A DNA stretch of 64,000 nucleotides from positions 5,601 through 69,600 of the forward strand of contig DYJN01000002.1 in NCBI GenBank assembly GCA_020723085.1, given 5' to 3'. The notes beneath the pieces are model-generated. The model did not search any database. It worked only from the letters and a program-made list of their open reading frames with translations, and was not told the origin of the DNA. The stretch comes from Arcobacter sp. (GTDB lineage: Bacteria; Acidobacteriota; Terriglobia; Bryobacterales; Bryobacteraceae). The translations under genes and the position numbers were made by a program. Below, one piece after another: positions 23,039 to 34,537 of this stretch (positions are counted from its first letter, which is position 1; every line of letters begins with the position of its first letter).

Positions 23039-23791
23039 GTGACAGGGATTTCGGGCAACGGCAGGAGCGTGCTGCGCACGGAGGAGGTAAGCAAGTCCTA
23101 CCGCAAGAGGCGCGTGGTGGACAACATCAGCATCAGCGTGGCCACCGGAGAGGTGGTGGGTCTGCTGGGGCCGAACGGCGCGGGCAAGACGACGACCTTT
23201 TACCTGATCGTGGGCATGGTGACGCCGGACGGAGGACGCATCTTTTTCGACGACCGGGAGATCACGGATCTGGCCATGTATGAACGCGCCCACACCGGCA
23301 TCAGTTACCTGCCACAGGAGCCCTCGGTGTTCCGCCGGCTGAGCGTGGAAGACAACCTGCTGGCGATCCTGGAGACCCTGCCGCTGCGCCCCGCCGACCG
23401 GCGCATGAGGCTGGAGGAACTCATCGAGCAGATGGGGCTCGAAGCCGTGCGCAAGAACAAGGGCTATGCGCTCTCGGGCGGCGAGCGGCGGCGTGTGGAG
23501 ATCGCCCGGGCGCTGGCGATTGAGCCGAAGTTTCTCCTGCTGGATGAGCCGTTTTCGGGCATCGACCCGATTCAGGTTCTCGAACTTCAGAGAATCATCT
23601 CACAGCTCAAAGAGCGGGGCATCGGCATCCTGATCACCGACCACAACGTGCGCGAGACACTGGCGGTGACCGACCGCGCCTACATCATCAACCAGGGACG
23701 CATCTTCCGCGCCGGCACGCCCGAAGCCCTGGCGCTTGACCCGGACGTCCGGCGCGTGTACCTGGGCGACAACTTCGCGCTGGGGCGGTAG
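23039..23791 (+). CDS. lptB: Lipopolysaccharide export ATPase LptB
   Basis: 250 residues. An ABC ATPase with Walker [11 protein letters not shown], a Q-loop (L-P-Q-E), the signature L-S-G-G-E-R-R-R (typical of LptB rather than L-S-G-G-Q), Walker B F-L-L-L-D-E-P-F, and an H-loop [10 protein letters not shown]. The last two stretches are nearly diagnostic for LptB, which powers LPS extraction from the inner membrane with LptF/LptG. The start is GTG at 23039; an internal GTG at 23069 is possible. In many bacteria rpoN and hpf follow lptB; here they lie 25 kb away. Confidence 0.95.
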
Positions 23792-24212
23792 GGACGATCC
23801 ACCGGCACACCTGTCGAGGGCCGAATGGCCGTGCTCAGCCCTGCGCTGGCGGAGGCAGGTTGAGGGAATGCCATCCGCGGACAGGCGCCCGCCAGCAACG
23901 GCGCCGCGACAGTGGAAGGAAAACAGTGCCGGTCGCCGCGAGACTCAGGGAGCCGAATTCGAGAATTTCCGGGACAGCAGCCTCCGGGCAGAGCCGATTC
24001 GTCCAACCCCCCGCGTAGAATCCTTGCCTGGAATCCGCAGTCTCGGCGGCGCCCTGCGGGGTCGCTCGAAAGGCGCCCGGATTTCAGACCACTGGGAGCC
24101 CGCATGGATGCCACCCAGTGGAATTTGCGGCGAACCAGCGCGGCTTCCCCGCCGGCAGCCGGCACGGCGTGAGCCTTCGCGGACAGCCTCCGCACACCAG
24201 GCTGGTTCCGTT
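23792..24212. other. Intergenic region between lptB and the TPR gene (convergent)
   Basis: 421 bases between two convergent genes. I find no gene-like frame, no stem with a T run in either direction and no repeat. It may be a decayed remnant. Confidence 0.5.
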
Positions 24213-25832
24213 TCACGCTCCCAGCCCGAAGTAGTCCTTGGCCAGTTCGGGCTTGACTTCCATGGCTCGCGCCCAGCACTGGCGGGCTTCGTCGGCGCGT
24301 CCGGTGCTCTCAAGAACGTATCCCAAGCCAACCAGGGCTTCGGCGAAGTCCGGCCTCCACTCAAGCGCCTGCCGGTAGAGAAGTTCGGCTTCGTCTTTCT
24401 GGCCGAGCTGTTCATGCAGCATGGCAGCGTTGTAGAGCACCTCTGGATCGCTGTGGCCGGAATCGATGAGCTGGCGGTGGTACTGGAGAGCCGCATCCAG
24501 GTGGTTCTGCTTGAGTGCGTTTACGGCTGCCGCCCGCAAGGCGGTCTCCCAGCCGGGTTTGACGGTGAGGGCGCGCTGCAATGCGGTTTCCGCCTCGTCG
24601 TAACGTCCGGACTCGTAACATGCCAGTGCGAGGTTGAGCAGCGCCTCCGCCCAGTCCGGCTGCACGGCCAGAGCAGCGCGGTAGGCATCGGCAGCCTCTC
24701 CGAAAGCATGCCGGTCGTACTTCATGTTTCCGAGACGGAACCAGAGGTCCGCGTTGCCGGGCTGCCGCATCGCCAGTACCTCCAGGAGAGCCTCGGCGTC
24801 TTCGTTCCTCCCCGACTTCTGATGCAGGCCCACCGCCAGGAAGTAGAGGTCGGCCATATCCGGGCAAGCCTCGATGCCCGCCCGGCAGGCGTTCAACGCC
24901 TCCTCGGAGCGCCCGAGCTCGCTCAGGATTTCCGCCACGCGAAGGTGCGCCTCGCCCAGGTCCGGCTGCAGGGCAAGCGCCTGTTGATAGGCCTGCAGCG
25001 CCATCTCGAGATTGCCCTCCTTGCGCCGGCAGAGCCCGAGGTTCATCCACGGTTCGACCGGCAGCCCTCCCTTGTCGGCCAACCACTGCAGATGTGTGGC
25101 GGCTTGTGCATAGTCTTCCTTCAGGAATGCTGCATAGGCGGCCGCTTCCCGCGCTGCCGCGGATTCCGGATCCACTGCAATCAGCCGGTTGCTGCAGGAC
25201 AGAAGACCGTCTCCGTCCTTCTTCTGGCGGTAGATGGAGCAAAGATTGATCAGGCAATCCCTCCCGTACTCGGGGTCCGAAGCCAGCTGCTCGTAAATGG
25301 GGATGGCGTGCTCCACGTCGCCGGTCAATTGCAGCGCCACTGCCTGACCGAAACGCGCAGTCGCGTCATCCGGGTGGCGATCCAGGTAGCGCGTCAACAG
25401 GGAAAGAGCTTCTTCGAGGTGGTGCAGGCGCAGGTGAGCCAGGCCCAACCCCAGCAATGCATCGTCCAGATCCGGGTCGGCGTCCAGCAGGGCCTGGAAC
25501 TGCTCGGTCGCCTCCTGCCAGCGCCCCGCTTTCAACGTGCATTGCGCACGCGCCAGCCTCGACTGCACATCGCCGTAGCCGAGGCTGTGATACTTCTCCA
25601 AATCCTCCAGCGCGCGGGACTCCTCGCCCAATTCCATGTACAGCATCGCGCGCACGCGGTAAGCCGGCGCGTAGTCCGGGCGGCGGTCAAGCAACCGGCT
25701 GAGTTCGTCTGCCGCCTCAGCTTTCTTGCCCAGGAGATGCAGGGCGCCTGCCCGTCCCAATTCGGCCGGGATGGCAGACGCGTCCGCCTCGACATTCCGT
25801 TCCGGTTGCATTTCCGTGTTCCACTCTGGCAT
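24213..25832 (-). CDS. TPR-repeat protein (about 15 repeats)
   Basis: 539 residues with almost the entire length built from tetratricopeptide units, recognisable by recurring A-x-x-x-Y/L-x-x-A-L-x-x-x-P patterns (for example A-L-Q-A-Y-Q-Q-A-L-A-L-Q-P-D-L-G-E-A and A-L-L-N-L-A-L-A-C-Y-E-S-G-R-Y-D-E-A). There is no signal peptide, membrane helix or enzymatic domain, so it is probably a cytoplasmic protein-binding scaffold. A GGAGA at a good distance supports ATG 25832. It starts 17 bases after the stop of the zinc-finger protein gene upstream and is almost surely co-transcribed with it. Confidence 0.85.
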   Translation of the reverse strand: MPEWNTEMQPERNVEADASAIPAELGRAGALHLLGKKAEAADELSRLLDRRPDYAPAYRVRAMLYMELGEESRALEDLEKYHSLGYGDVQSRLARAQCTLKAGRWQEATEQFQALLDADPDLDDALLGLGLAHLRLHHLEEALSLLTRYLDRHPDDATARFGQAVALQLTGDVEHAIPIYEQLASDPEYGRDCLINLCSIYRQKKDGDGLLSCSNRLIAVDPESAAAREAAAYAAFLKEDYAQAATHLQWLADKGGLPVEPWMNLGLCRRKEGNLEMALQAYQQALALQPDLGEAHLRVAEILSELGRSEEALNACRAGIEACPDMADLYFLAVGLHQKSGRNEDAEALLEVLAMRQPGNADLWFRLGNMKYDRHAFGEAADAYRAALAVQPDWAEALLNLALACYESGRYDEAETALQRALTVKPGWETALRAAAVNALKQNHLDAALQYHRQLIDSGHSDPEVLYNAAMLHEQLGQKDEAELLYRQALEWRPDFAEALVGLGYVLESTGRADEARQCWARAMEVKPELAKDYFGLGA

Positions 25833-25849
25833 GACAAATTCTCCGATGC

Positions 25850-28312
25850 TCAGCCGATTTTTCCCTCTCTTGAAATTCCTGAAAAACGAAATTCGGACGG
25901 CCCAGCGCCGCCCATTCTCAGGCTGCCTGTCGCATGCGCTTTAGGAAACCGGCAGACCAGGTGGCGCAGCTTCAGCCGCTCCGGATGGTGAAGCGGCCCT
26001 GCGCCGGCGCCCACGATCCGCGCCGGCTCCATTCCTGCCCCGGACTCAAAGTGCCGGCCGAGGCTGCATACCCTGAACACTGGGCCGCATACCGGCAGCA
26101 TGACGGGCAAGCTTGAAATGCCATCGTTGCGCCACTCCGGGGACTCGAGTTCAGCCCTGCCCCATGCCGCTCTCCCCACCTCAAACATGCGATAGGTGCT
26201 GCAGGACTCCGGCTCCCACTGAGCCGGCTGAACTGCGGAGGCGGGAGCGGCTGTCGCCAGACTCGCATCCATAACGGTCTGGCTGGGAAGCCTCCATAAC
26301 GCGGCGGGAGACGCTGCCGGCGGGGGCGCGGTGGACCGCTCGGCTGCCCCAAGTCTGAATTCCGGACGTCGCACGGCATGGCTCAGCCCGAGGGAGCGCC
26401 ATGCGACCAAAAGAACCGCCGGCGCATGGACGTAGACCTGATTGTGGGTTCCAGAGGCGGGATGCCGCGCTGCCCCAGGGGGCCTGACTACAAATGCAGT
26501 TGATGGCCAGAAGTCCTCGCGCACCAGGGAAATCGGACCTGGATGAGCCTGCCCCGGCATCCTGAGTGCGCCCTTTGCCGATTGCCACACGGAGGCAGCG
26601 GGCGGCATGCCGCCTGCAACGAGGCGTGTTACGATCCGTTGCGGCTGATGCACCTGCGCCGCCGTGTGCCGCAGATGACGCGAAACCGGGAAAGGTTTGA
26701 AGAACCCTGGGGCATCGATCATTGCACCGCCGCCCGGCCACTTCTCACCAACCATGCCGCCTGAGCGGCTGGCGGCGATCACCTGTGGGACCGGACCGTG
26801 CTCGGCGGCGAAGTCGAAGCGAGCCGGCGGATGCACCGTCGCGCCCGGCACGCCTGGCAGGGACGCAGAGATCGCGCGCTGTGCAGCTTCCTCCCCCGTC
26901 CATGCCGGCGCTACGATCTGAAGCCGCCGCTCAGGGGTCAAGCCAACCGGCGAAAACGGCTCCTTCGGGAGCTTTCGTCCCGGCGGAAAGAGCCGTCCCG
27001 GGGAAAAGAACGACGCAGGTCTTCCGTGCGACACTGCGGTCAGTTCCGCATTCGCGGGATCCTCCTGGGAAGCCTGCCCTGCCCAGTGTTCAGCATCCTT
27101 GCGCGCCTCGGATGCCTGTCCTGAAAGGTCTGCCCTGAGAAGAGGTCTTGCGTTCTGCCATTCTGCCGGAGCCGTCCACGCCAACCGTGGCAGGGCTCTC
27201 ACGCCGCCTGTCGCCGCAGTCTGGCAGAACCCTGGAAGACGGCACATGCGGCTGTCGTCCGCCTGCTCACGGATGACGGAGTTCCTCCAATCCGCCGGCG
27301 GCTGACTGGCAGCTACCGCGCGGCTGGATTGCGGTAGCGTGAACGACGAGGCGGCGCGTGGCAGCGACCCGCCCCACCTGGCAGCCGGAGGCACAGCGCC
27401 GGGCGCCTGGCAGGGGAGGATAGACGCCCGTTCCCGCCAGAGCAAGGCAACAGCCGCGGCATCCGGCTGGACGAGCGGCAATCCCGGAATGGCTGTTGTC
27501 CTCCACCCACGGGAGGGCGGCTCTGCCGGCGTTTTCCAGCGAGAAGCATGAGACAGCCAAGGCTCCCCACGAACATTGGAAGCATCTGACTCCACCCATT
27601 GGGCAGGGCGGCCCGGGTCCGGCATCTCACTGCCTCCGTTGGCATCATAGCCCGGCACGGGCAGAATCACCAGCCCGCCGCGGCAGAGTGGCTTAGTCTG
27701 GCGCCGCGAAGCATCCGCCGGCAGTTTGACAGCCTCTCCGCCGTGTTCCCGCCAGACGCATGCCGCCGGCAGGCGGACCACGCCACGCCCCTCGCGCCAA
27801 TACGCATGACGATTCAATCTCCCCGCCCGGGGCACGCTTCCCTGCAGCGCATAGCCCGGCTCCGGGCTGCGCACCGCCGCTACGGGAAAGGTTTCCCGCC
27901 ATTGCTCCTTCAGCCGGGGAGGCAGGGACTCGTCCAATGCGCCTGGCGTCTCCTGGCGCTGTCGGCTGGGGCGAATCGTGACCTTCGTGGTCTCGGAACA
28001 AAGCCGCGACCCCCCGCCTTGGCGGCGGTACCGTCTGACCCGGTCCAGGAATCCTTCGGCTTGCTGGCGGTAATACTGCTGCTCATGCCACTCCGAGCAG
28101 AAGCGCTCTCCCTTGAGCCGCGCCAGAAACGGTAACGGCTGTCCGCACCACTGGCAACAGCCCTCCCTGGCGCCTTGGGGCCCGCTCGTTCCGCCGCCAG
28201 CCTGAAATGCCTCCGCATGTTCAGGGGAGCAGAAGCCGCCATGAAGGCGCAAGACCTCCTCAGGGAATTCCCCCTGGCAATACAGGCACCGGCTTGCAGG
28301 ACTCTCAGCCAC
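25850..28312 (-). CDS. Unrecognised 820-residue protein with two N-terminal FCS-type zinc fingers
   Basis: GTG start at 28312. Residues 9-32 and 53-76 are two copies of the same zinc motif, C-X2-C-X15-F/C pair-X3-H: C9, C12, C28, H32 and C53, C56, C72, H76, each with F-C-S before the last His. This resembles FCS/MYM/TRASH-type treble-clef fingers. A short basic stretch follows (R-R-Y-R-R). The remaining ~700 residues are low in Lys, rich in Pro, Ala, Arg, Ser and Trp, and contain about ten degenerate P-A-x(0-4)-W motifs spaced tens of residues apart, suggesting worn repeats. No enzyme domain is visible. Competing frames in the region are short and non-family, so I take the gene as real. It is paired with a downstream TPR gene. 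Confidence 0.7.
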   Translation of the reverse strand: MAESPASRCLYCQGEFPEEVLRLHGGFCSPEHAEAFQAGGGTSGPQGAREGCCQWCGQPLPFLARLKGERFCSEWHEQQYYRQQAEGFLDRVRRYRRQGGGSRLCSETTKVTIRPSRQRQETPGALDESLPPRLKEQWRETFPVAAVRSPEPGYALQGSVPRAGRLNRHAYWREGRGVVRLPAACVWREHGGEAVKLPADASRRQTKPLCRGGLVILPVPGYDANGGSEMPDPGRPAQWVESDASNVRGEPWLSHASRWKTPAEPPSRGWRTTAIPGLPLVQPDAAAVALLWRERASILPCQAPGAVPPAARWGGSLPRAASSFTLPQSSRAVAASQPPADWRNSVIREQADDSRMCRLPGFCQTAATGGVRALPRLAWTAPAEWQNARPLLRADLSGQASEARKDAEHWAGQASQEDPANAELTAVSHGRPASFFSPGRLFPPGRKLPKEPFSPVGLTPERRLQIVAPAWTGEEAAQRAISASLPGVPGATVHPPARFDFAAEHGPVPQVIAASRSGGMVGEKWPGGGAMIDAPGFFKPFPVSRHLRHTAAQVHQPQRIVTRLVAGGMPPAASVWQSAKGALRMPGQAHPGPISLVREDFWPSTAFVVRPPGAARHPASGTHNQVYVHAPAVLLVAWRSLGLSHAVRRPEFRLGAAERSTAPPPAASPAALWRLPSQTVMDASLATAAPASAVQPAQWEPESCSTYRMFEVGRAAWGRAELESPEWRNDGISSLPVMLPVCGPVFRVCSLGRHFESGAGMEPARIVGAGAGPLHHPERLKLRHLVCRFPKAHATGSLRMGGAGPSEFRFSGISREGKIG

Positions 28313-28419
28313 GGCTACCGTCTACTTCGGCAGAAACTGCCGCCAAGATTAGCCTGAACTCAGGTAAATTGCCGAATAAGGCGCCCGGGCAGTCCCCATT
28401 TTCGGGGTAGAATGCCTCC

Positions 28420-29970
28420 ATGAAACCGCTTTCGATTCTCCTGCTGGCTGCCTGTGCGCTCCTGGCGCAGCCGCCCCAGGCACGCATCAAGATCGATACC
28501 GACCGCCGCATCGGCGAGATCCATCCCCACATCTTTGGCAATTTCGCCGAGCACCTCGGCCGCTGCATCTATGGCGGCATTTACGAAGAAGGCAGTCCCC
28601 TCTCCGACGAGAAGGGCTACCGGAAAGACGTCATGGAAGCCGTGCGCGGCCTTGGCGTCACGATTCTCCGCTGGCCCGGCGGAAACTTCGCCTCCGGCTA
28701 CAACTGGAAAGATGGCATTGGCCCCAAGGACCAGCGCCCGGCGCGACCCGACCACGCCTGGGGCGACATCGATTCCAACCGATTCGGCACCGACGAGTTC
28801 CTCCAGTACTGCGAGCGGATCGGCGTCGAGCCCTACATCTGCATCAATGCCGGCCTGGGTTCGATCAACGAAGCGCGCGAATGGGTCGAATACACGAATG
28901 AATCGCGCCAGACCTACTGGGCTGATCTGCGCCGCAAGAACGGCCGTGACAAGCCTTACAACGTCAAATACTGGAGCCTGGGCAACGAGATCGACGGTCC
29001 GTGGCAACTGGGCCACAAGAACGCTGAAGATTACACCAAGTTCGCCCTGGAAGCGGCCAAGGCGATGCGCCGCGCCGACGCGTCCATCAAGCTGGTGGCG
29101 GCGGGCTCTTCCAACTTCGGTCCCGGCGCTGACTGGATCGCCTGGAACCGTGTCGTGCTCGAGCGGCTCCGCGGCGAGATCGACTACATCAGCCTGCACA
29201 CCTACATCGGCAACCGCGAGAACAATTTCGAGAACTTCCTGGCTGCCTCGGCCGACATCGATCAGCGCATTGAAATCACGGAAGGGCTGATTCGCGCCGC
29301 CTTGGCCGGGCGCCGCGTCACGCGTCCCATCTACATCGCCTTTGATGAGTGGAATGTCTGGTACCGCGCGCGCGGCGGCTCCGAGTTCGACACCGGCGCG
29401 ACGCGGCTCGAGGAGAAGTACAACTTCGAAGACGCCCTGGCCATGGGCATGTTCTTCAACTCGTTCTTCCGCCACGCCCACATCGTGAAGATGGCCAACC
29501 TCGCGCAGCTGGTCAACGTCATCGCCCCCATTTTCACCAACAAGCAGGGCCTGTTCCTGCAGCCCATCTACTTCCCCATCGCCGAGTACGGCAAGCAGAA
29601 AGGGAACGTGGCGCTTGAGGCGCTGGTCGAGTCGCCGAAGTACAAAGCCGGCTACCGCGGCGAACTCGGCTATCTCGACGCCAGCGTCACCTGGAACGCG
29701 AAAGCGCGCGCACTCTACGTGAACGTGCTGAACCGCAGCGCCTCGCAGGATATCACCACGCGGATCGAAAGCGTCGAAGGCAGGCTCGCCCCGTTGGCCG
29801 AGTTCTGGCAGATGTACCACGAGGATCTCAAGGCCGCCCACACGTTCGGAGACGACAGGCGCGTGCGGCCGCGGACCTGGAAAGAACCGCTGAAACTTGA
29901 CCGCAACGGTTTTGTGTACCGCTTCCCGAAACACTCGCTGACCATCGTGAAGCTCGCGCTGGAGCCCTGA
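28420..29970 (+). CDS. Alpha-L-arabinofuranosidase, GH51 family, exported
   Basis: 516 residues. The N-terminal ~17 residues form a signal peptide ([14 protein letters not shown]), so it is likely periplasmic. The barrel carries the acid/base E190 (S-L-G-N-E-I-D-G) and the nucleophile E310 (A-F-D-E-W-N-V-W-Y), with early motifs [11 protein letters not shown] and R-W-P-G-G-N-F. GH51 enzymes remove arabinofuranose from arabinan and arabinoxylan. A TAGAAT sits at 28408-28413, only seven bases before the ATG, so the message could be leaderless; no good -35 supports this. With the GH127 gene at 60961 it points to use of plant arabinosides. Confidence 0.93.
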
Positions 29971-31601: not shown

Positions 31602-33089
31602 CTACGCGGCCTGCAATCGCAATTCGCGAATCGCCCGGACAAGTGGGGTAGCGGCCTCATCCAGCGATGCTTCCATCGGAAATGTCGTCAGCCAGAGCTC
31701 GAATTGGAAGCCCTGGACCGGAACCTGAGCCTTCTGAATCAGTAGCCCGCGGCGTTCCAGCGAGTCCCAGGTCGACTTGTGGCAGGGATAGATGAGCAGT
31801 GCCAGACGCCTCCCCGGAGGTAGTGTGGCGGAATAGGCGAGGACCTGAAAAATATCGGCGCGGTGCTGTTCCAAAACTTCTGTGGCGACGGTGTAGCGCG
31901 GCGCCGAGGTGAATTCTTCCAGATGGCGTTTGTACTTTGCGTCAGCGATCAGTGTGAAGTCGGGAGCTTCCAGCACGAAGTCGGGAATCAGACTCATTTG
32001 CGTCCCTGCCGCGGGACGCTCCCAGCGCAGGGGGATCTGCGTCTGCCGTAATCTCCCGCGACGCAGGATTCCGCCGGTGTGCAAACTGATCCTTTCGAGG
32101 ACGCACTCGACCCACGCTTCGAAGAACAGGTCCATGTCCATTGCCCAAGGGATCCCCTCGAGATCCGACATCCCCGCGAGTCCGCGTTCGTCCGCTGTCC
32201 ACTCGATCGCTTGCAGACCCTCGTGGAACGTTTCGCTGCGCAATGGCATTCGCGCCATGCTCTGGAGATGCGTGGCTGTGGGGCGTACCGGCGCCGCGTC
32301 GCGGACCTTGTCCAGGATCCGGTTGGCGCGTTCCAGCAGCATGTGTACGAAGGACCCGTGATGAAGCTGCGTGTGAAGGCTGCGTGCCTGCCTCTCCGCG
32401 GTCCACCGGACCATCCCCTTCAAAGTCCGGTCATCGCGCAGGTCGGGGAATCGGCAAGGGACGTGATCTGGTCTGCCTTTGGCCAGATGGCGCGTGACGT
32501 ATTCCTCCCAATGAACGGTTCCCTTCGGTGCGGGAATCACAGAATCCGTAAACTCGAAACGCCGGTGCAAATGGTGCACCAATGCTTCGAGGCGCTCCAA
32601 GACCATCAAGGAAATCACCCAGGGAGGAACACGGCGCTCCGATCGGCGGAGCAAAGGAAGCCGGAGAGGACGCGGAGCTACCCGCCAGCCCATCTGTCCG
32701 AGCATGGGGCCAAGCCCACGCCAGGGAAAGCGGGGCTGGATCACGAGACCTAGGTCGGGTCGCCCGCTGAGCGGGGACAAGAGGGGAACAGCGCAAATAC
32801 TCGAACCAGATTCGAGTTCGAAGCAGACCTCGTTGCCGTCGTATGCCGTGATGGCTCGCAAACCAAGCGTTTCCAACAGCCGCTGATTCTGGCGAAGGAA
32901 CTGCCCGGCGAGGCGTGCGTGCGTAGCGCCGTCTGTTCGCCGGTCCTGGACGGGGAACAATCGGCTGGCAGGGATCCGCCGGGCACTGTGATCTTCGAGT
33001 TCCAGGCAGATCTCGCTCGCCGGCTGCACGCGCAGGAGCGGCGAGGATAAGTCCGCATTTCGCTTCTTGCCGGCTTTGGCACGGCTCAT
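31602..33089 (-). CDS. mcrC: McrC-like nuclease subunit of a modification-dependent restriction system
   Basis: 495 residues. The C-terminal half has a PD-(D/E)xK nuclease core, P-D370 in S-L-I-P-D-F-V-L-E and D383-A-K385 in I-A-D-A-K-Y-K-R, as in McrC. This subunit joins the McrB GTPase ring and cuts modified DNA. The N-terminal region is the usual McrC beta-rich part with no further motif that I can name. The ATG overlaps the mcrB stop (ATGA), so the two are translated together. Base composition is lower in GC than on either side, which suggests recent gain. Confidence 0.87.
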   Translation of the reverse strand: MSRAKAGKKRNADLSSPLLRVQPASEICLELEDHSARRIPASRLFPVQDRRTDGATHARLAGQFLRQNQRLLETLGLRAITAYDGNEVCFELESGSSICAVPLLSPLSGRPDLGLVIQPRFPWRGLGPMLGQMGWRVAPRPLRLPLLRRSERRVPPWVISLMVLERLEALVHHLHRRFEFTDSVIPAPKGTVHWEEYVTRHLAKGRPDHVPCRFPDLRDDRTLKGMVRWTAERQARSLHTQLHHGSFVHMLLERANRILDKVRDAAPVRPTATHLQSMARMPLRSETFHEGLQAIEWTADERGLAGMSDLEGIPWAMDMDLFFEAWVECVLERISLHTGGILRRGRLRQTQIPLRWERPAAGTQMSLIPDFVLEAPDFTLIADAKYKRHLEEFTSAPRYTVATEVLEQHRADIFQVLAYSATLPPGRRLALLIYPCHKSTWDSLERRGLLIQKAQVPVQGFQFELWLTTFPMEASLDEAATPLVRAIRELRLQAA

Positions 33090-34537
33090 GATAATGACTC
33101 GATCTCCTGAATCAGGGCACGCACTTCTTCTGCAAAGCCAGAAACAAACCCCTGCGCCAGATACTCCTCAAGGAGCGGAAGGAGTTCGAACTTCAGCCGC
33201 CGCACGGCCAAAGCTTCATTCTCCGCTAAAAAATAAGAGTGGCCAGGAACCAGAGACATGGCGTCTTCGGTGGCATGTTCGACAAATAGTGAGATGGTCC
33301 GTGTAAAAAATGTTTGCGACAGTTCACAGCCATGCTGCTTGACAACCTCAAAAGATGGCCAAAGGTTTACAAAGGCAAATCTTCGCCGGACGGCCACGTC
33401 CACGAGTGCGATACTTCGGTCCGCCGTGTTCATAGTCCCGAGTACGTGCAGTTGTCGCGGCAAACGGAGCCGGGAACCACCAACCTCAGGGAATGCATAG
33501 GGCAGAGTGACTTCCCGATCGGGATCCGACGCCTCGAACAGATAGATCGCTTCGCCGAGAACCTTGGCCAAGTCGGCGCGGTTGATCTCGTCGAGTACGA
33601 GCAGCCTCTTTTGCCCGTTGCTGCGCGCGATCTCTGCCATCAGATATCCGGGACGGGGCTCGAAGCGGAGCCCTGTGCCAGCGTTGTCCTGCACCGGAGC
33701 CAGACCGCCGACGAAGTTCTCATAGGTCGTATTGGCGTGAAACTGGACAACTGAGCCGCGGCGGTCATATTCCTGTTCCAGCAGGCTTTTGGCCAAGTGA
33801 GTCTTGCCCGTGCCAGGCGGTCCCTGCAGAATGACGAACCGGCGAGAGTCGAGCAGTCTGAAAATTTCGTCCCTGCTCACGGAAGGAAAAATGTGACGGA
33901 ACCATTCGCCTAGGATATTCTGTGCGTCCCCCTTGCTGCCCGTGAGCGGCTCAGATCCGCGTTCACCGATCAAAAGATCCAGAAAGGCCAAGATGGCGTC
34001 CCGTGTGAGGTCCGAGGCGTCCTCCGGAGAGAATGCGGCATAGATTTCACCACCATAGCGTTTGAAGGCGTGACCAAACTTGGGCCACCGCTTGCACACG
34101 TCGTCCGGGACACGAATATCAGTTCTAGTGGGGTCCTGTTTGGCCCAGGCAGAGTCTCCGCGCCTCTGATTCAGCCAGGAGCAGATAGCCCGGATCTTGC
34201 GCGCATGTCCCGGACGGCTCAAGATGACCTCGTCGGGACTCAGCCCCTGCGTTCCCACCACCATGGCGACCAGGCAGGGTCCGTTCCACTCCTTCGGGGG
34301 AAAGAAGACGAGAGATGTTCCTCCATAAGCTCCGCTGTCAGGATTGCCTGAATGGATGTACGCCGCGTAAGGAACGTCAATGTCGCTCGGTGCACGCAGT
34401 TTCACCGAGCCTTTCGCATCCGCTGGATATCGTCCGCCATTGGAGCCAAAGAGGCCGTTTAGAGCATCTTTATGAGACTCGGCCCAGGTTTCCTTTTGTG
34501 GTGTGCAAATGAGGCGGACAAGCTGTTCTATGGCCAT
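33086..34537 (-). CDS. mcrB: McrB-like AAA+ GTPase with an unusual N-terminal domain
   Basis: 483 residues. The AAA+ module has Walker A G-P-P-G-T-G-K-T (239-246), Walker B L-V-L-D-E-I-N-R (D316) and the McrB-type M-N-T-A-D-R-S (369-375), which in McrB relatives contacts GTP. Residues 1-190 hold a separate domain (V-P-Y-A-A-Y-I-H, S-P-D-E-V-I-L-S-R-P-G-H-A-R-K). Its position matches the DNA-reading domains of McrB proteins, but I do not recognise it as a named type. It starts three bases after a permease stop codon (TGA-AAA-ATG). Local GC falls to about 45-55% in parts, against about 70% in neighbours. Confidence 0.88.
   Translation of the reverse strand: MAIEQLVRLICTPQKETWAESHKDALNGLFGSNGGRYPADAKGSVKLRAPSDIDVPYAAYIHSGNPDSGAYGGTSLVFFPPKEWNGPCLVAMVVGTQGLSPDEVILSRPGHARKIRAICSWLNQRRGDSAWAKQDPTRTDIRVPDDVCKRWPKFGHAFKRYGGEIYAAFSPEDASDLTRDAILAFLDLLIGERGSEPLTGSKGDAQNILGEWFRHIFPSVSRDEIFRLLDSRRFVILQGPPGTGKTHLAKSLLEQEYDRRGSVVQFHANTTYENFVGGLAPVQDNAGTGLRFEPRPGYLMAEIARSNGQKRLLVLDEINRADLAKVLGEAIYLFEASDPDREVTLPYAFPEVGGSRLRLPRQLHVLGTMNTADRSIALVDVAVRRRFAFVNLWPSFEVVKQHGCELSQTFFTRTISLFVEHATEDAMSLVPGHSYFLAENEALAVRRLKFELLPLLEEYLAQGFVSGFAEEVRALIQEIESLS

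What the first reader, a model, noticed from the sequence alone, without database searches (positions are those of the whole stretch)
24213..28312. Unrecognised gene pair: double FCS-type zinc-finger protein plus TPR scaffold
The 820-residue protein has two equal C-X2-C-X15-C-X3-H fingers and then ~700 residues with about ten worn P-A-x(0-4)-W motifs and no known domain. A 15-repeat TPR gene follows after 17 bases. The layout suggests a dedicated binding complex: zinc-finger recognition, a repeat-rich arm and a TPR platform. I know of no described system with this composition.
Basis: partly seen in the sequence, partly recalled or inferred. Interest (0 to 1): 0.7.

Follow-up and report, generated by a model that had tools for sequence, protein, structure and literature searches.

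The report
Soluble zinc-finger and TPR gene pair
Two neighbouring genes of a Bryobacteraceae-type (Acidobacteriota) bacterium encode a zinc-finger protein with a very long, floppy, tryptophan-dotted tail and a spiral TPR protein that probably grips that tail; the pair is a membrane-free copy of an undescribed gene pair found across the bacterial order.

Summary
An 820-aa protein with two C-X2-C-X15-C-X3-H fingers is followed after 17 bp by a 15-TPR protein. AlphaFold gives the TPR protein pLDDT 92; the finger protein's tail is about 30, with almost no structure predicted.

The pair is not isolated. Nearly every homologue of the TPR gene examined in the family (39 of 41 loci), and four checked in two other families of the order, has a finger-first gene directly upstream. 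The usual version has one finger, a Pro/Ala-rich low-complexity stretch, one transmembrane helix and a ~190-aa C-terminal domain without Pfam or PDB match. The window pair ("type B") is a duplicate that gained a finger and lacks the membrane helix and that domain.

Short finger-TM-domain proteins without the long stretch have no TPR gene nearby (3 of 3). The TPR spiral keeps an OGT-like asparagine ladder, and the tails carry an enriched W-[RK] motif. I infer that the spiral binds the extended tail, as OGT binds the OGA tail. What the fingers bind, and the pathway, are unknown. The tail evolves fast (omega 0.76, CI 0.63-0.90), but its frame is open in five species. I found no published description.

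The parts
25850..28312 (-). Finger protein, 820 aa, GTG start, type B (two fingers, basic segment, long disordered tail, no transmembrane helix, no C-terminal domain)
   Evidence: ORF; orthologues in all 5 genomes of the genus and in G050; no Pfam or NCBIfam match
28217..28288 (-). Finger 1, residues 9-32, C-X2-C-X15-C-X3-H; the extra finger of type B
   Evidence: Motif; C9, C12, C28, H32 invariant in six type-B proteins
28085..28156 (-). Finger 2, residues 53-76; the counterpart of the single finger of the usual, membrane-anchored proteins
   Evidence: hhalign of type-B and canonical alignments pairs finger 2 and the following helix with the canonical N-terminus, probability 97.3, E=1.7e-11
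27968..28084 (-). Conserved basic segment, residues 77-115 (HEQQYYRQQAEGFLDRVRRYRRQGGGSRLCSETTKVTIRP region); predicted helix 74-97
   Evidence: 71-81% conserved among the genus; helix H74-97 in the model
25853..27967 (-). Tail, residues 116-820: predicted disordered, fast-evolving, 22 Trp with W-[RK] motifs
   Evidence: pLDDT about 30, almost no secondary structure; W statistics; omega 0.76, CI 0.63-0.90
25943..25984 (-). C-terminal motif PERLKLRHLVCRFP, residues 777-790, the best conserved island of the tail's last third
   Evidence: Conservation 0.51 in block 781-800, highest in the tail; alignment
25839..25844 (-). Likely ribosome-binding site GGAGAA before the TPR gene
   Evidence: Read from the sequence
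24213..25832 (-). TPR protein, 539 aa, 15 TPRs plus a capping helix; Asn/Arg ladder at helix-A position 6: N196, N264, R366, N400, R433, N468
   Evidence: Pfam TPR hits; model pLDDT 91.7; N196, N264, N400, N468 identical in all 40 homologues, R366 in 98%, R433 in 93%
28313..28419 (.). 107-bp intergenic region shared with the divergent alpha-L-arabinofuranosidase gene (28420-29970, +)
   Evidence: Gene layout; same neighbour in all six type-B loci and in G518; conserved GGCTAATCTT block before the finger gene in the window, L089 and L090

Best explanation
The pair is a co-transcribed two-protein scaffold. The TPR protein forms a superhelix whose inner groove carries an asparagine ladder. It binds, in extended form, stretches of the partner's long disordered tail, with the recurring W-[RK] motifs as side-chain anchor points. 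The two treble-clef fingers and the adjoining basic helix stay free at the tail's N-terminal end and capture a cytoplasmic partner (nucleic acid or protein). The usual paralogue does this at the inner membrane: its tail continues through one transmembrane helix into a C-terminal domain that is probably outside the cytoplasm. The window copy arose by duplication, gained a finger, lacks membrane helix and outer domain, and so works as a cytosolic version. Shown: gene order, family, domain losses, predicted fold of the TPR protein, ladder conservation, motif enrichment. Inferred: disorder (prediction only), groove-tail binding, membrane topology, co-transcription. Unknown: the finger ligand and the pathway.
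For: A finger gene lies directly upstream of the TPR gene in 38 of 41 family loci, 39 with L062, and in the four checked members of two other families of the order. Three short paralogues (finger-TM-domain, about 330 aa, no long stretch) have no TPR homologue within about 4 kb, so the long stretch and the TPR gene go together. The TPR protein has N196, N264, N400, N468 invariant in 40 homologues that are mostly about 35% identical to the window protein. Its natural sequence matches and top fold matches include OGT and SPINDLY. OGT holds a segment of the OGA disordered region along its asparagine ladder (PMC10618255). W-[RK] enrichment is in the protein's frame only. Related tails are built of internal repeats that each carry a Trp: four 54-aa copies in L096; ~70-aa units with ESRPWRP in L115. 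The type-B TPR clade is 100/100 supported, with the same species order as the usual copy.
Against: No binding, expression or localisation data. AlphaFold of the tail used four sequences, so low confidence is only suggestive of disorder. The exact W motif is weak in G002, and the 3-finger relatives reach only p=0.02-0.09 for W[RK]. The ladder residue is not Asn in several window repeats where the family has it (A94, R298, L332, G502). Two TPR loci (L053 and the second in L046) lack a finger gene.
Confidence: 0.5

Rival explanations
1. The window finger protein is a decaying duplicate: after losing its membrane helix and C-terminal domain the tail is under little selection, and only the TPR protein and perhaps the fingers still matter.
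For: Tail omega 0.76 against 0.20 for the finger part and 0.09 for the TPR; tail identity 36% where the TPR is 88% identical in the nearest species; a type-B tail in G613/L092 is split by a frame change inside repeats.
Against: Tail frame open over 646-806 codons in all five species of the genus against 12-16 stops expected, none of 500 shuffles open; omega upper limit 0.90; conserved C-terminal motif; W-[RK] enrichment persists; tails of the usual, clearly retained copies vary just as much.
Confidence: 0.15
2. The finger protein is a condensate scaffold: its Trp/Arg stickers drive phase separation or higher-order assembly, and the TPR protein is a client or chaperone of that assembly rather than a stoichiometric partner.
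For: Long, low-complexity, predicted-disordered tail with 15-29 Trp and an excess of W-R; repeat-driven tail growth in relatives.
Against: No direct evidence; many usual copies are less Trp-rich; three soluble members of another family have acidic tails with about 1% Trp.
Confidence: 0.15
3. It is a transcription regulator pair: the fingers and basic helix bind DNA or RNA polymerase, and the TPR protein controls availability, like an anti-sigma or gyrase-inhibitor type zinc protein.
For: Fingers resemble YacG and FCS/DUF2116 treble clefs; basic segment RVRRYRRQGGGSRL next to finger 2; a CarD-like gene lies near the usual copy in 17 loci.
Against: Not the HxxxCxxC anti-sigma motif; no sigma-factor gene at a constant position; the CarD neighbour is absent at the window locus; treble clefs bind many ligands.
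Confidence: 0.15
4. The two genes are merely neighbours kept together by vertical descent, with no physical partnership.
For: No interaction data; 17-bp spacing alone is common in bacterial operons.
Against: Same order and tight spacing at paralogous loci in different genomic contexts and across three families; TPR presence tracks the long stretch.
Confidence: 0.05

Closest known systems
O-GlcNAc transferase (OGT) TPR superhelix bound to the disordered region of OGA
   Same: Long TPR superhelix with an asparagine ladder at helix-A position 6; proposed binding of an extended disordered segment along the groove
   Different: No glycosyltransferase domain; the partner is encoded next door and headed by zinc fingers; binding not shown
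YacG, FCS-type and DUF2116 treble-clef zinc fingers (also TniQ and Polyhomeotic)
   Same: C-X2-C-X15 spacing ending in FCS-x-x-[CH]; weak profile matches
   Different: Last ligand is His, two or three fingers in type B, none reaches a curated cut-off; YacG itself is a separate gene in the genome
Membrane-anchored paralogue in the same genome (G000:C41, locus L045)
   Same: N-terminal finger, variable low-complexity stretch, TPR gene immediately downstream
   Different: One finger, a transmembrane helix and a ~190-aa C-terminal domain that the window protein lacks
Zinc-binding anti-sigma factors (ZAS type)
   Same: Like the usual paralogue: small cytoplasmic zinc domain, one transmembrane helix, extracytoplasmic domain
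   Different: Other zinc motif, no partner sigma gene, long stretch plus TPR partner instead

Membership tests
TPR proteins | Tandem 34-residue helix-turn-helix repeats matching Pfam TPR models | tested here: met
   TPR_2 E=3.3e-46 and many others; 31 helices, pLDDT 91.7
OGT-like asparagine-ladder TPRs | Asn at helix-A position 6 along consecutive repeats | tested here: met
   N196, N264, N400, N468 invariant in 40; N298, N332, N502 in 72-85% of the family but not in the window protein. Met in part: ladder interrupted in the window clade
OGT (GT41) | C-terminal glycosyltransferase domain | tested here: not met
   The 539-aa protein is TPR repeats to the end; no such Pfam hit among those shown
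Treble-clef / FCS-type zinc fingers | Zinc knuckle C-X2-C and FCS-type second half | tested here: inconclusive
   All four ligand residues invariant in 41 fingers; best Pfam DUF2116 'probable treble clef' E=1.4e-4 in one member, zf-FLZ 0.0066; PDB TniQ E=2.7e-4; none over a curated cut-off that I saw
YacG | C-X2-C...C-X3-C finger followed by the LIDLG motif | tested here: not met
   Last ligand His, no LIDLG; hhalign probability 78% over the finger only
ZAS anti-sigma factors | HxxxCxxC motif | tested here: not met
   Motif is C-X2-C-X15-C-X3-H
ZAS anti-sigma factors | Gene next to a sigma factor gene | tested here: not met
   Sigma-like ORFs in only 5 loci at inconstant positions
DUF1080 / 3-keto-disaccharide hydrolase (for the C-terminal domain of the usual paralogue) | Profile match to PF06439 | tested here: inconclusive
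   No Pfam hit; hhalign 28-63% with ten PF06439 members from the same genome

The most novel reading that the evidence does not exclude
An undescribed, order-wide bacterial TPR-and-disordered-tail system: treble-clef proteins whose Trp-Arg motif tails are held in an OGT-like asparagine-ladder groove, normally tethered across the inner membrane, and in the window detached and turned into a cytosolic multi-finger scaffold.
Probability: 0.35. Interest if true: 0.68.

Novelty: new variant of a known kind. Interest (0 to 1): 0.52.

Why it matters
The parts are known kinds of domain, but the combination is conserved across a bacterial order and appears in none of the family libraries or papers searched. 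If the TPR groove binds the disordered tail, it would be a bacterial counterpart of the OGT-OGA arrangement, with partner and groove encoded side by side and the tail evolving quickly by internal repeats. The window pair, its membrane-anchored sister and the short TPR-free form sit in one genome, which makes the system testable by comparison.

Tried and rejected
Pfam, NCBIfam and PDB profile searches of the whole finger protein: nothing useful. PDB search of the C-terminal domain of the usual paralogue: nothing; DUF1080 kinship only weak. Apparent finger-TPR fusion of 1145 aa in L062: rejected, it is the finger gene read in the wrong frame, and the real finger gene of 604 aa lies there. DNA-level repeats in the window tail: none of 24 nt or more, although relatives have them. 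Antisense ORF 23736-25991 (+): no family match, treated as chance in GC-rich DNA. Phylum-wide search for the TPR profile at E 1e-70: only the same family among 396 genomes. Literature searches for the combination: no relevant paper.
Full report
OBSERVATION. The finger gene is 25850-28312 (-), 820 aa, GTG start; the TPR gene is 24213-25832 (-), 539 aa; 17 bases separate them, with a GGAGAA ribosome-binding site before the TPR gene. The two fingers are C9-H32 and C53-H76. No Pfam or NCBIfam model matches the finger protein. The TPR protein is a 15-repeat superhelix with a capping helix, pLDDT 91.7. In the finger protein the fingers and the helix at 74-97 are modelled with moderate confidence, while residues 102-820 are mostly near 30 with almost no structure; the alignment was shallow (4 sequences), so this suggests rather than proves disorder. 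The 5-sequence TPR alignment gave a confident model.

IS THE TAIL CODING? Between the window genome and its nearest relative G003, dN/dS is about 0.20 for residues 1-145, 0.09 for the TPR protein and 0.76 for the tail, with a bootstrap interval for the tail of 0.63-0.90. Part of the tail cannot be aligned reliably, so the ratio is rough. The tail frame is open in all five species of the genus over 646-806 codons, where 12-16 stops would be expected, and no shuffle of 500 was open. The other frames hold 8-15 stops. So it is a real, fast-evolving coding region.

THE W MOTIFS. P-A-x(0-4)-W is enriched in the window tail (9 against 1.8) but not consistently in relatives. Pooled over six type-B tails, W is followed by R 35 times against 13.9 expected and by E at +2 18 times against 7.7. 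W-[RK] is enriched in the true frame only (10 against 2.6). Related tails have visible internal repeats with a Trp in each unit: four copies of 54 aa in L096 and ESRPWRP units of about 70 aa in L115, a member of another family. The window's own tail has no DNA repeat of 24 nt or more left.

FAMILY AND ORIGIN. The window lies in a Bryobacteraceae-type genome: the named relatives are Bryobacteraceae and Bryobacterales MAGs. All five genomes of the genus carry the finger protein, and TPR homologues occur in 53 of 101 relatives at E<=1e-30. Reading upstream of 41 TPR homologues, 38 have an immediately adjacent finger-first gene of 384-1487 aa, and L062 makes 39. Four members of two further families of the order show the same layout. 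The usual protein has one finger, a Pro/Ala-rich low-complexity stretch, one strongly hydrophobic segment such as LKWIAVALPLLLVVVVYSF, and a ~190-aa C-terminal domain. That domain has no Pfam or PDB match and at most a weak profile resemblance to DUF1080; related domains outside the family follow PEGA domains, so an extracytoplasmic place is likely but not shown. The window genome holds three forms: short finger-TM-domain without TPR (C106), long membrane form with TPR (C41), and the soluble window form (C69). Finger 2 and its helix pair with the usual N-terminus at hhalign probability 97.3, so finger 1 is the addition.

PHYLOGENY. The type-B TPRs form a 100/100 clade of the five genus members plus G050, with the same branching order as the usual copy. 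G613 belongs to it, and a three-finger soluble form in genus g43 is a weakly supported sister. Type B is patchy in genus g47. A double-finger search of 200 genomes of the order gave 83 with hits, all in the same family; most are single fingers of the usual type. A phylum-wide TPR search at E 1e-70 found nothing outside the family among 396 genomes; other families of the order were thinly sampled there, so the absence outside the order is tentative.

MECHANISM. Two independent lines suggest that the TPR groove holds the tail. First, co-occurrence: proteins with the long stretch have the TPR gene next door, and three short paralogues without it have none nearby. Second, the groove: helix-A position 6 carries N196, N264, N400 and N468 in all 40 homologues and R366 and R433 in 98% and 93%, the register of the OGT asparagine ladder; OGT is the best natural sequence match and OGT and SPINDLY are among the top fold matches. 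In OGT this ladder holds an extended segment of the disordered region of OGA (PMC10618255). I therefore infer that the TPR superhelix grips the extended tail, with W-[RK] motifs as anchor points, leaving the fingers and the basic helix free to capture a partner. The finger ligand is unknown: profile matches are to treble clefs of diverse function (TniQ, Polyhomeotic, YacG, DUF2116).

CONTEXT. The type-B gene is divergent from an alpha-L-arabinofuranosidase gene in all six loci and in G518. A CarD-like gene lies near the usual copy in 17 loci. Neither defines a function.

VERDICT. A real, undescribed, order-wide gene pair of known kinds of domain; the window copy is a soluble duplicate. The mechanism is plausible and testable, at about 50% confidence.

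Noticed in passing
window 28420-29970 (+): Alpha-L-arabinofuranosidase gene divergent from the finger gene across 107 bp; the same neighbour occurs in all six type-B loci and in G518.
   Followed up: partly
L033, L035-L037, L039-L043, L045, L048, L049, L051, L052, L055, L058, L059: A CarD-like regulator gene (~170 aa) lies upstream of the membrane-anchored finger gene on the same strand in 17 loci.
   Followed up: partly
L099:4229-5209 (+), L105:4829-5821 (-), L107:4792-5793 (-): Short finger-TM-C-terminal-domain proteins of about 330 aa without the long stretch and without a nearby TPR gene.
   Followed up: partly
L096:5184-8219 (+), L097:4341-7100 (+): Three-finger soluble relatives in genus g43; L096 has four 54-aa tail repeats.
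   Followed up: partly
L095:5094-7750 (L092:3311-5922): Type-B tail with 168-253 nt direct repeats and a change of frame inside the repeats; may be an assembly error or real recombination.
   Followed up: no
G000, 20 places: The window genome has 20 matches to PF06439 (3-keto-disaccharide hydrolase / DUF1080), a sizeable expansion.
   Followed up: no
window 31602-34537 (-): Two adjacent genes that look like an McrB-type AAA protein (33086-34537) and an McrC-like partner (31602-33089), judged from the translations only; related ORFs sit at the same place in four genus loci.
   Followed up: no
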